Shown piece by piece: positions 1 through 3,167 of a DNA stretch of 5,775 nt (position 1 is its first letter; every line of letters begins with the position of its first letter). The notes beneath the pieces are model-generated. The model ran no database searches and was not told where the DNA came from. It saw only the letters and a list, made by a program, of their open reading frames with translations. Both the position numbers and the translations under genes were made by a program. Source of the stretch: Candidatus Odinarchaeota archaeon (GTDB lineage Archaea > Asgardarchaeota > JAGGXT01); NCBI GenBank assembly GCA_021162905.1, contig JAGGXT010000003.1:1-5775 (forward strand), in the 5' to 3' direction.

Positions 1-158
1 AGATATCCGTAAGAGTAAGAAAAAGCGGGGAAACCATACAAATGAACGTCAATGAACTCATAAATCGCCTTCGCGAAGAAACAAAAGGATATCCAAAGAA
101 ACCGTTATATTTCTCAAAATATCTTTCAAAACGTCCAAGATTTATGCATCTAGATTAA
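1..158 (+). CDS. thrS: C-terminal end of a probable threonyl-tRNA synthetase (5' partial)
   Basis: The open frame enters from the left edge (first full codon at 3) and ends at TAA 156-158, leaving 51 residues. Visible elements are a beta-strand ISVRVRKSGE, a helix-like stretch NVNELINRLREETKGYP, and a basic end with KPLYF and LSKRPRF. The strand followed by 'M.vneli..lreE' resembles the end of the anticodon-binding domain of class IIa aminoacyl-tRNA synthetases, and threonyl-tRNA synthetase fits best. In the complete enzyme this domain would read the tRNA-Thr anticodon, while catalysis (charging tRNA with threonine) lies upstream, outside the window. No catalytic motif is visible, so the assignment rests on a short match. 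Another class II synthetase is the main alternative. The gene is on the same strand as the transporter operon but 212 bases away, with a separate promoter between them, so a functional link is not implied. Confidence 0.55.
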   Translation, partial: ISVRVRKSGETIQMNVNELINRLREETKGYPKKPLYFSKYLSKRPRFMHLD

Positions 159-370: not shown

Positions 371-2134
371 ATGAGAGGGAATCGGAGGGTTAAAGTAGCA
401 GCAATTGTAGCAGTAATAATCATAGTTATTGGTATCGCCGCTGGCATATACTATTATTATGTAACAAGACCAAAGCCGCTACATCTACTTCTAACGTATG
501 GGGCTGGTGATCCTATCGAAATGAAAACGGCAGAAATACTTAAAACAACATGGGCAGAGTTAGGCATAGATTTAGAAGTTAGAAGCATGGAATGGGAAGC
601 TCAGTGGGAATTAGCTAGAGGAGATCCTCTAAAAGCTCAAGATATTTTCGTAATGTACTATTGGCCAGGTATTATTACAGCGTATAGTTATTTATACGAT
701 CTCTTCCATACGCAGGAAGAAGTGTTATTTAACTTGGCTTATTGGAGCGATCCAGAGGTCGATGAGTTAATGGATGAAGCATTCAGAACAGAGGCTTTAA
801 ACATGACGAAAGCTGTAGAACTTTACGAAGAAGCTCAAAACAGAATAATGGAAGAAGCTCCAGTGATATGCTTTTTTGATCTTATGAGTATTCATATAAT
901 AAAGAAAGGAATTAAAGGTTACGTCGATAATCCAATCTATACGCACGTTGTACGTTGGTACGAACTACAACCACCAACTGATACTGAAAATGATACATTC
1001 ACTTACGCATGGGATTCTGTTATCTTTACTACGCATGATCCAAGTGAATCCTTCTCCAATGAAATAATAGCTTTACAAAATATGTATGAACCATTAGTGA
1101 GAATTTATCCCAATGGAACAGTTGTTGGTGTACTAGCTACAAACTGGACGGTATCTGATGATGGATTGACTTGGACTTTTTGGCTTAGAAAAGGTGTTAA
1201 ATTCCACGATGGAACGCCATTTAATGCAACAGCAGTTAAATACTCAATTGAAAGAACAAAAGAACTAGGTATGGGACCATCATACTATTGGGATTGCGTA
1301 GATAGTATCACAACATTCCCTGATAACCCGTATAAAGTTCAATTTAATCTAAAATACCCAGCTCCATTGTTAACTGCTATTGCAAGTGCACCTTATGGCG
1401 CATACATATTCAGTCCTTCGCTGAAGAAAATAGGTAACCATACAGAAGTATGGCAATGGCTTAATGAAGGAGTATTTGAGGGAAACCCACCATATAGTTA
1501 CGGTACTGGACCTTACTACCTTGCAAAATGGGTAGAGGGACAATATGCAATATTTAAGAAATTTGATGAGTACTGGGGTGGATGGGACGGTCCGCACTAC
1601 GAGATGGTAATAATAAAGGTAATGCCGGAACCAACTACAAGAGAAGCAGCATTATTGGCTGGGGAAATCGATTTCACATATAATTTACCGCTAGAACACT
1701 TAGAAAATATTAACGCGAGTGGTAAGGCTGTTGTTGTAGCCGAGCCAGCACCTATGAATCTGATTGGGCTAATAAATACTAAAAAGCCACCATTAGATAA
1801 TAAATTAGTACGTCAAGCTTTATCATACGCGGTGCCATATGAAAAAATTATAGATGAAGTCATGTTAGGCTACGCTACTAGATCTTACGGTCCAGTTCCT
1901 CCGGGTATACCCGGTCACTCCAAGAACGTATTTCAATACCCCTATAATATAACTAAAGCTAAAGAACTCCTTGAACAAGCAGGGATAAAAACACCGAAAA
2001 AAGCAGCATTGACCATCGCATATTCAAGTGTTATGTTGCCATGTTTTCTCGCACTTACTTATCCACCACTCGCCTTAGAGAATACCAGAGAAGGTGTTAG
2101 AAAACAGAAATATGAAGAGAAATGCGATGAGTAA
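371..2134 (+). CDS. Family 5 ABC solute-binding protein with circularly permuted domain order
   Basis: This 587-residue extracytoplasmic binding protein would capture the ligand (peptide, oligosaccharide or similar) for the DppBCDF-type transporter encoded downstream. Residues 1-8 are basic (MRGNRRVK) and 9-30 form a hydrophobic signal-anchor with no lipobox cysteine. Normally the N-terminal lobe follows. Here residues 35-199 match the usual C-terminal part (AEILKTTWAELGIDLEV, then AVELYEEAQNRIMEEAP, then IKGYV.NP near its end). Residues 208-542 match the usual N-terminal part: YEPLVR..PNG at 239-249, WTVSDDGLTWTFWLRKGVKF at 259-278, GTGPY at 378-382, KFDEYWGG at 397-404, KKPPLDNKLVRQALSYAV at 471-488 and AKELLEQAG at 530-538. 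The two parts sum to about 500 residues, a full family complement. Residues 543-587 do not match the family. There are eight N-X-S/T sequons. The start is fixed by a strong ribosome site. The family assignment is firm; whether the permuted order exists in the genome, rather than being an assembly or cloning artefact, is less certain. Confidence 0.9.
   Translation: MRGNRRVKVAAIVAVIIIVIGIAAGIYYYYVTRPKPLHLLLTYGAGDPIEMKTAEILKTTWAELGIDLEVRSMEWEAQWELARGDPLKAQDIFVMYYWPGIITAYSYLYDLFHTQEEVLFNLAYWSDPEVDELMDEAFRTEALNMTKAVELYEEAQNRIMEEAPVICFFDLMSIHIIKKGIKGYVDNPIYTHVVRWYELQPPTDTENDTFTYAWDSVIFTTHDPSESFSNEIIALQNMYEPLVRIYPNGTVVGVLATNWTVSDDGLTWTFWLRKGVKFHDGTPFNATAVKYSIERTKELGMGPSYYWDCVDSITTFPDNPYKVQFNLKYPAPLLTAIASAPYGAYIFSPSLKKIGNHTEVWQWLNEGVFEGNPPYSYGTGPYYLAKWVEGQYAIFKKFDEYWGGWDGPHYEMVIIKVMPEPTTREAALLAGEIDFTYNLPLEHLENINASGKAVVVAEPAPMNLIGLINTKKPPLDNKLVRQALSYAVPYEKIIDEVMLGYATRSYGPVPPGIPGHSKNVFQYPYNITKAKELLEQAGIKTPKKAALTIAYSSVMLPCFLALTYPPLALENTREGVRKQKYEEKCDE
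473..967 (+). other. Displaced C-terminal part of the family 5 binding protein
   Basis: Residues 35-199 of the binding protein begin at a beta-strand (PLHLLLTYGAGDP) that in E. coli DppA and relatives comes after the AKxLLxxAG helix. They run through the helix 'aeilkttWAELGI' and the 'YEEAQNRIMEEAP' helix to the final IKGYV...YEL strand region, which is normally the end of the protein. In this gene the block directly follows the N-terminal anchor. The comparison with DppA is from memory of the family, not from an alignment program. Confidence 0.8.
992..1996 (+). other. Displaced N-terminal part of the family 5 binding protein
   Basis: Residues 208-542 start with the first strand of the family (TFTYAWD), which would normally follow the signal peptide and its linker. 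They end after the AKELLEQAG helix, exactly where residues 35-199 would be expected to continue. No signal peptide or internal ribosome site precedes the block; it is joined to the previous one by residues 200-207 (QPPTDTEN). It spans the strands and helices usually assigned to domain I, domain II and the first part of domain III. Confidence 0.8.
1997..2131 (+). other. Non-family C-terminal tail, possible second membrane anchor
   Basis: Residues 543-587 follow the AKELLEQAG helix. A lysine pair (543-544) leads into a hydrophobic stretch, AALTIAYSSVMLPCFLALT (545-563). A proline-containing segment and a strongly charged end rich in Lys, Arg and Glu follow. By hand hydropathy the stretch is borderline to good for a transmembrane helix. 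Its first residues, ALTIAYSS, also resemble the strand that normally opens the C-terminal part, so it may instead be a remnant. Neither other forward frame gives a better family match. Confidence 0.4.
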
Positions 2135-2147: not shown

Positions 2148-3167
2148 ATGGGGTTCAAAAGTTACTTAGTGAAACGGCTTATACTGTCAGTTGTGGTAAT
2201 ACTTGGCGCTATTACCCTTACTTTTTTTGTTTCACGAATTATACCTTCAGATCCCGCTGCTTTATGGGCAGGTTCCCGTCCAAGGCCTGAGCAAATAGAA
2301 AGGGCCCGGAAATTTCTAGGTCTAGATAAACCCCTACATATTCAATATATAATATACATTAAAAAGCTATTTTCTGGAGATTGGGGTTACTCGATAAAGT
2401 TTAAGAGGCCTGTACTATCGGTAATTTTTGACCATCTACCCGCAACCCTTGAACTTGTTATTATCAGCTACATAGTTGCAATACTTATAGGTATACCCTT
2501 GGGTGTTATTTCTGCAGTTAAGGAGAATAAATTGACCGACCATGTTACTCGAGTTATCTCAGTCATTGGCGCGTCTATGCCTACTTTCTGGCTTGGAATA
2601 GCTTTACAACTTATTTTTTATGGTAAACTTGGTATTCTTCCTCTGTCAGGTAGAATAGATCCCATGATAATGCTTGAAAATCCGTTAGAAGAAATAACTG
2701 GTTTTTACCTCATTGATAGCATATTAACTAGGAACTGGGTCGCATTTAGAAGTTCACTTACACATATAATATTACCAGCTCTTTGCATTGCTACGTACCC
2801 CATGGGGCTTTGTACAAGAATGATTAGAGCTTCTATGATAGAAATTTTAAGAGAGAACTATATTAGGGCTGCCAAGGCAAGCGGTCTTCCAGAAAGGTTT
2901 ATAACGTTTAGATACGCTTTGAAAAACGCAATAATACCCGCAATGACTACTTTAGGTTTATCCTTCGCATACTCCATCACGGGTGCATTTCTTGTCGAAA
3001 TAATATTTGACTGGGGTGGAATTGGAACCTATACAGTTTATGCGATTCAGACCATGGATTATCCTCTTATTATTGGTATAACTGTTTTTATGAGTATATT
3101 TTACGTTTCTATCAATCTCCTTTTAGACATATTACAAGCCATAATTGATCCGCGTGTAAAATACTAA
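2148..3167 (+). CDS. dppB: ABC importer permease, DppB/OppB family
   Basis: One of two membrane subunits forming the translocation channel of the importer. At 339 residues it has the normal family length. The N-terminal basic segment VKRL precedes a first membrane helix at about 11-31, followed by the usual external loop with LGLDKPLHIQY (57-67) and GDWGYS (77-82). Further helices begin at the LPATLEL region (97-103) and at the GASMPTFWLGI stretch (141-151). The family insert with TGFYLIDSILT precedes the EAA-type cytoplasmic loop at about 240-260 (RAAKASGLPERF...), which docks on an ATPase subunit. The protein ends in the typical IDPRVKY. It starts 13 bases after the binding-protein stop and pairs with the DppC-type subunit that follows. 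The symbol denotes the family; substrate is unknown and could be peptide or oligosaccharide. Confidence 0.92.
   Translation: MGFKSYLVKRLILSVVVILGAITLTFFVSRIIPSDPAALWAGSRPRPEQIERARKFLGLDKPLHIQYIIYIKKLFSGDWGYSIKFKRPVLSVIFDHLPATLELVIISYIVAILIGIPLGVISAVKENKLTDHVTRVISVIGASMPTFWLGIALQLIFYGKLGILPLSGRIDPMIMLENPLEEITGFYLIDSILTRNWVAFRSSLTHIILPALCIATYPMGLCTRMIRASMIEILRENYIRAAKASGLPERFITFRYALKNAIIPAMTTLGLSFAYSITGAFLVEIIFDWGGIGTYTVYAIQTMDYPLIIGITVFMSIFYVSINLLLDILQAIIDPRVKY

What the first reader, a model, noticed from the sequence alone, without database searches (positions are those of the whole stretch)
371..2134. Circularly permuted family 5 solute-binding protein heading an otherwise ordinary importer operon
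Seen in sequence: motifs that close canonical DppA/OppA-type proteins (helix ending WAELGI, YEEAQNRIMEEAP, IKGYV near the end) occupy residues 35-199. Motifs that open the family (TFTYAWD, YEPLVR, WTVSDDGLTWTF.LRKGVKF, GTGPY, KFDEYWGG, VRQALSYAV, AKELLEQAG) occupy 208-542. The order is swapped in one uninterrupted frame, and the blocks add up to about 500 residues, a full protein. Established: in OppA/DppA structures the chain begins and ends in the same domain (I), so joining the native ends is structurally plausible, with new ends created inside domain III. Inference: the protein can still fold into a two-lobed binder, with the anchor now attached at domain III instead of domain I, which would change how it is presented to the permease. 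I know of no described example of a permuted cluster C binding protein, but could not search.
Basis: partly seen in the sequence, partly recalled or inferred. Interest (0 to 1): 0.9.

Follow-up and report, generated by a model that had tools for sequence, protein, structure and literature searches.

The report
Naturally rearranged (circularly permuted) nutrient-binding protein
This archaeal gene makes a nutrient-capturing protein whose back part has been moved in front of its front part; relatives in other microbes are rearranged too, from more than one origin, so it is real and not an assembly error.

Summary
Confirmed, and wider than thought. ORF 371-2134 (587 aa) is a family-5 (cluster C) solute-binding protein in swapped order: membrane helix, canonical C-terminal part (37-199), linker, canonical N-terminal part (209-540), short tail. 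It heads a DppBCDF importer operon. It is no chimera: a Baldrarchaeota (Asgard) MAG has the same gene (559 of 580 residues identical, dN/dS 0.19), and three more proteins (51-68% identical) are collinear with it. Order changed recently: P0003 (permuted) and P0005 (canonical) are 82-85% identical half by half. The same cut recurs in Hodarchaeales/Heimdallarchaeota and Deinococcota families; one origin for the window's family and the Hodarchaeales family is rejected (AU p 8e-6). A different cut, in lobe I, marks a Chloroflexota family matched in 38 of 301 genomes. Permuted binding proteins are known in other clusters (TpMglB-2; glycine-betaine-binding proteins); ten searches of an open-access library gave no report for cluster C. 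Ligand binding, docking and any benefit of moving the anchor are inferred; the bacterial permuted families, which lack a C-terminal anchor where I looked, speak against a general anchor explanation.

The parts
371..2134 (+). permuted family-5 solute-binding protein, 587 aa
395..451 (+). N-terminal hydrophobic helix (residues 9-27), probable membrane anchor or signal
   Evidence: hydropathy 2.91 over 19 residues; predicted helix 5-32
479..967 (+). canonical C-terminal part placed first (residues 37-199)
   Evidence: C-half profile 38-199; 5u4o 373-509
968..994 (+). linker joining the native C- and N-ends (residues 200-208, QPPTDTEND)
   Evidence: alignment A1; sequence
995..1990 (+). canonical N-terminal part placed second (residues 209-540)
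1991..2134 (+). C-terminal tail with a weak hydrophobic stretch (residues 541-587) and stop codon; resembles the tail of canonical-order relatives P0005/P0006; hardly constrained here
2148..3167 (+). DppB-type permease
   Evidence: PF00528, PF19300
3185..4111 (+). DppC-type permease
   Evidence: PF00528, PF12911
4122..5096 (+). DppD-type ATPase
   Evidence: PF00005, PF08352
5100..5774 (+). DppF-type ATPase, cut by the window end
   Evidence: PF00005; complete in L001 10728-11702

Best explanation
The protein is a natural circular permutant of a cluster C (DppA/OppA/NikA-type) solute-binding protein and serves as the substrate receptor of the DppBCDF importer encoded next to it. Shown: both canonical parts are present once each, in swapped order, in an intact, conserved gene under purifying selection, with matching importer genes. 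Inferred: the chain folds into the usual two-lobed binder, with the native ends joined in lobe I by a short linker and new ends in lobe II at the helix-strand boundary after AKELLEQAGI; it binds in the cleft and docks on DppBC as usual, but its membrane tether pulls on lobe II, not lobe I. Inferred origin: in-frame duplication of the mature part inside the gene (anchor-N-C-N-C-tail), then loss of the first N and the last C part, keeping the original anchor and tail. Ligand, weakly inferred from the operon in L001: a hydantoin-like or amino-acid-derived compound.
Against: No binding or transport data. The aligners used matched the N-half only, so placement of the C-half in the fold was not checked against solved structures; only pTM speaks for it. 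The tail is evolving almost freely (dN/dS 0.75 over 40 codons). For family E loci L088-L090 no importer gene was seen in the stretch held. No anchor-N-C-N-C-tail intermediate of this family was seen. The ligand guess rests on neighbours alone.
Confidence: 0.9

Rival explanations
1. The order is an artefact: a chimeric assembly of two paralogous binding-protein genes.
For: No whole genome is held for the window, and the near relative G001 has six further matches to family-5 genes.
Against: The same three novel joins occur in L001 from another assembly and in P0002-P0004 at 51-68% identity; other families with the same order lie in contigs of 3.1-4.9 Mb (P0121; P0250 and P0251).
Confidence: 0.01
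2. The gene is a decaying pseudogene or fusion by-product that no longer feeds the importer.
For: The last 40 codons compared evolve almost freely (dN/dS 0.75) and the C-terminal ends of window and L001 differ.
Against: Both halves are under purifying selection (0.15 and 0.12, one pair of sequences); the frame is open in the collinear relatives P0001-P0004 and L001; importer genes are intact.
Confidence: 0.04
3. One ancient permutation gave all families with the window's cut; canonical order returned in some branches.
For: The cut falls at the same place, within a few residues up to about a linker's length, in families A-E and G. In the quick tree C, E and G group (SH-aLRT 97) together with canonical L050, so these three at least could share an origin; the tool warns of long branches there.
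Against: Family A sits among canonical proteins and family B among other canonical proteins; one clade is rejected with both halves (AU p 8.4e-6), with the N-half alone (7.6e-49) and with the C-half alone (3.6e-4).
Confidence: 0.05
4. Permutation is neutral with respect to anchoring; cuts fall where the fold tolerates them, and the anchor correlation is a by-product of archaeal lineages.
For: Deinococcota family G: the frames of the 8 loci examined end shortly after the N-half, leaving no room for a C-terminal anchor. Chloroflexota family H: 6 of 6 loci examined have no hydrophobic C-terminal segment and their cut is in lobe I.
Against: A C-terminal hydrophobic segment is present in 22 of 22 family B and 111 of 113 family E proteins of near full length, against 6 of 25 canonical Asgard frames and 2 of 205 canonical proteins of the first two searches.
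Confidence: 0.55

Closest known systems
Cluster C solute-binding proteins DppA, GsiB/YliB, NikA (PF00496)
   Same: Both halves, motifs, predicted N-half fold and DppBCDF operon
   Different: Order of the two halves swapped; ends in lobe II instead of lobe I
TpMglB-2 (Tp0684), 'Type Ic / Cluster Bc' (PMC4990184, passages read)
   Same: Natural circular permutation of a tethered ABC solute-binding protein; its authors raise tethering as a possible reason
   Different: Cluster B glucose-binding fold, different cut; crystal structure and binding shown there
Circularly permuted glycine-betaine-binding proteins (PMC2395249, passages read)
   Same: Circular permutation among ABC binding proteins
   Different: Another kind of binding protein; found by structure comparison
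Tandem fused family-5 chains in Asgard genomes (L087, L094, L095)
   Same: Same domain, fused in one chain; possible kind of intermediate
   Different: Canonical order repeated, not permuted

Membership tests
Cluster C / SBP family 5 (PF00496) | Match to PF00496 above the curated score | tested here: met
   293.3 bits against cut-off 32.4
Cluster C / SBP family 5 (PF00496) | Canonical order of the two parts along the chain | tested here: not met
   C-half 38-199 before N-half 206-540; two swapped stretches on 5u4o
Cluster C / SBP family 5 (PF00496) | Genes for DppB, C, D, F-type importer adjacent | tested here: met
   complete in L001
Cluster C / SBP family 5 (PF00496) | Two-lobed fold | tested here: inconclusive
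   Model pLDDT 80, pTM 0.77; N-half matches; C-half placement not compared
Cluster C / SBP family 5 (PF00496) | Binds a ligand in the cleft | not testable with these tools
   needs purified protein
Natural circular permutant of cluster C | Each part present once, order swapped, in one frame | tested here: met
Natural circular permutant of cluster C | Order conserved in independent genomes | tested here: met
   P0001-P0004 and L001
Natural circular permutant of cluster C | Gene under purifying selection | tested here: met
   dN/dS 0.19, one pair only
TpMglB-2 'Cluster Bc' | Belongs to the cluster B sugar-binding fold | tested here: not met
   Only PF00496 matched at E 0.001 in Pfam

The most novel reading that the evidence does not exclude
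Cluster C solute-binding proteins are circularly permuted again and again, at three or more sites, in Asgard archaea, Bathyarchaeia, Deinococcota and Chloroflexota, with order changing even between proteins over 80% identical; chain order is an evolvable trait of this family, and in archaea the change is favoured because it moves the membrane tether from lobe I to lobe II.
Probability: 0.3. Interest if true: 0.8.

Novelty: new variant of a known kind. Interest (0 to 1): 0.69.

Why it matters
Natural circular permutation with repeated origins in one family is a rare kind of case (my judgement), and here close relatives in both orders (82-85% identical per half) give a ready natural pair for asking how order, tether position and permease docking relate. 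It also matters for annotation: standard profiles see two swapped fragments. Of the PDB chains matched by the permuted profiles (60 shown of 114 for A5, 60 of 102 for A6), none has a best stretch that runs through both halves, and no NCBIfam model reaches its cut-off on four permuted proteins.

Tried and rejected
Chimeric assembly: rejected by independent contigs. Viral carriage: 57 stretches matched a pattern in viral contigs, none encodes a relative by tblastn. One common origin of families A and B: rejected. Positions of families C, D, E and G relative to one another: unresolved, long branches. A second cut site: L092 (G053) has order end-of-N, C, start-of-N, with an anchor-like end; among 227 Asgard genomes only G053 itself matches that protein end to end in one piece at E 1e-40, and its relatives in G042, G045-G049 and G052 match as two pieces in canonical order, so it is one unreplicated case. 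The structure aligners confirmed the N-half only. The general anchor explanation is weakened by families G and H. Literature: ten searches gave no report of a permuted cluster C protein; for most papers I saw the listing only, and the library is open-access without preprints. Bathyarchaeia genomes could not be searched, as I reached no handle for them.

Full report
What is there. The open frame 371-2134 encodes 587 residues: a hydrophobic helix (residues 9-27), the part that normally ends a family-5 solute-binding protein (37-199), a nine-residue linker QPPTDTEND (200-208), the part that normally begins one (209-540), and a 47-residue tail. The eleven motifs looked up are at the stated places. 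PF00496 scores 293 bits in two stretches, and against solved structures the two query pieces align in swapped order, e.g. 233-544 on 5u4o 70-364 and 48-188 on 373-509. Downstream lie DppB, DppC, DppD and a cut DppF.

It is not an assembly error. Of the 120 best proteins listed of 2560 found, four (P0001-P0004; 97, 68, 51, 51% identical) align to the window nearly from end to end and 116 have canonical order. P0003 bears the name Candidatus Bathyarchaeia archaeon. A genome scan found the near-identical gene in MAG Candidatus Baldrarchaeota Yap30.bin4.67 (L001): 559 of 580 residues identical, 97% DNA identity over the window, and the same operon. dN/dS of this pair is 0.19 for the gene, 0.15 in the C-half, 0.12 in the N-half, and 0.75 in a 40-codon tail. 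So the two halves are kept by selection and the tail is hardly constrained.

The order has changed recently in this family. P0005 and P0006 have canonical order but the same odd tail (..SLIPCF.. or a close variant) as permuted P0003 and P0004. P0003 and P0005 are 82% identical in the N-half and 85% in the C-half, though differently ordered. In the tree of both halves the canonical pair is nested among permuted proteins; holding the five permuted ones together is rejected (AU p 5.5e-7; with four of them 0.0017 for the N-half and 0.00056 for the C-half). The tree of both halves needs three changes of order; starred branches of the N-half tree force two. Their direction is not resolved, and gene conversion between paralogues of both orders could mimic this.

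The same rearrangement recurs elsewhere. I call the window's family A. Scans of 227 Asgard genomes and two more protein searches gave: family B, DppA-like proteins named Hodarchaeales/Heimdallarchaeota (of 120 listed of 1925, 26 have the C-half first, 91 are canonical and 3 are shorter proteins with the N-half only), one in a 4.9 Mb contig; family C, a second permuted gene in the Baldrarchaeota genome (L057); family D, L059; family E, in 33 of 227 Asgard genomes at E 1e-100 or better, 32 of them with a match spanning both halves and one at a contig edge (my count), including proteins of Candidatus Heimdallarchaeum endolithica and aukensis in contigs of 3.3 and 3.1 Mb. In family E the first part is too diverged for my C-half profile, but an alignment of it from 115 of the 120 proteins listed (of 445; the other five are 441-524 residues long) matches the canonical C-half at 97.8% probability (E 1.3e-12) and the N-half at 0.7%. 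In bacteria, family G: 10 of 111 Deinococcota genomes have a match at E 1e-40 to the permuted Trueperaceae protein L131 that spans both halves, three of these matches with one stop codon inside; of 8 loci examined by profile 7 show C before N and one the N-half only. In families A-E and G the cut lies at nearly the same place, after the helix ending ..LLxxAGY.

Other cuts. Family H: in a Chloroflexota (Anaerolineae) genome, L150 3303-5036 has the order canonical 169-552, then 51-168 (numbers of P0158), the middle segment matching the canonical C-half at 98.5% and the N-half at 0.2%, with DppB and DppC genes after it and DppD and DppF before it on the other strand. Of 301 Chloroflexota genomes 38 have a match at E 1e-70 in the same order; 37 of the 39 matches cover at least query 48-546 of 553, one begins at 91 and one ends at 408. 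Six of six loci read out show the swapped order. Its cut lies well inside the N-half, thus in lobe I. Family F is one Asgard protein, L092, cut elsewhere in the N-half. Among the four bacterial genomes these two, L131 and L150, were the rearranged ones that I noticed in the list; I did not read out every match.

More than one origin. With A, B and canonical relatives in one tree, A lies among canonical proteins akin to P0007-P0120 and B among canonical DppA-like proteins akin to P0150-P0240; one clade for A and B is rejected (p 8.4e-6; N-half 7.6e-49, C-half 3.6e-4; in the C-half tree B itself is not one clade). C, D, E and G are on long branches and cannot be placed; C, E and G group with canonical L050 in the quick tree. 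F and H are cut elsewhere and so need events of their own. That makes at least four events: A, B, F, H.

How it works, and why. Most likely it is an ordinary receptor for the neighbouring importer with an unusual chain order and the tether on the other lobe. Importer genes stand beside the permuted gene in the window and in L057, L086, L096, L097, L098, L099, L092, L131 and L150; for the family E loci L088-L090 no such gene was seen in the stretch held. Origin by duplication and loss is the textbook route (recalled); tandem fused N-C-N-C chains in Asgard genomes (L094, four units in 2781 residues; L087; L095) show that such fusions occur. The ligand is unknown; in L001 the operon continues with a protein matching S-Me-THD_N/C and an Asp/Glu/hydantoin racemase, followed by a second racemase, hinting at hydantoin-like or amino-acid-derived compounds.

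What is known. Natural permutation of binding proteins has been described for TpMglB-2, a tethered cluster B glucose-binding protein whose authors propose the name Cluster Bc and raise tethering as a possible reason (PMC4990184, passages), and among glycine-betaine-binding proteins (PMC2395249, passages). Ten searches of the open-access library found nothing on permuted cluster C proteins (listed under Tried and rejected); subscription papers and preprints were not searched. I file it as a new variant of a known kind.

Noticed in passing
window 1-158: 3' end of a threonyl-tRNA synthetase gene, complete in L001 3962-5800.
   Followed up: yes
L150 3303-5036; L151-L156: Chloroflexota binding-protein family permuted at another site, in lobe I; 38 of 301 genomes matched.
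   Followed up: partly
L094 2625-10967; L095 1575-12440 (-); L087 1423-4389: Long Asgard frames (2781, 3622, 989 aa) with two to four family-5 binding domains fused head to tail in canonical order.
   Followed up: partly
L092 2756-4915 (-): Asgard binding protein permuted at yet another site, before the RKAFAMSF helix of the N-half; one genome only of 227.
   Followed up: partly
L131 6469-8124: Permuted binding protein in a Trueperaceae chromosome, with a racemase-like gene upstream and DppBCDF downstream.
   Followed up: partly
L001 11721-13627; L055 13805-14575 (-): S-Me-THD-like protein and two Asp/Glu/hydantoin racemases after the importer genes.
   Followed up: partly
L090 958-7298 (-): Three family E binding-protein genes in a row in one Asgard genome.
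   Followed up: no
window 1991-2134: Tail of the permuted protein evolves almost freely and its last residues differ from L001.
   Followed up: partly
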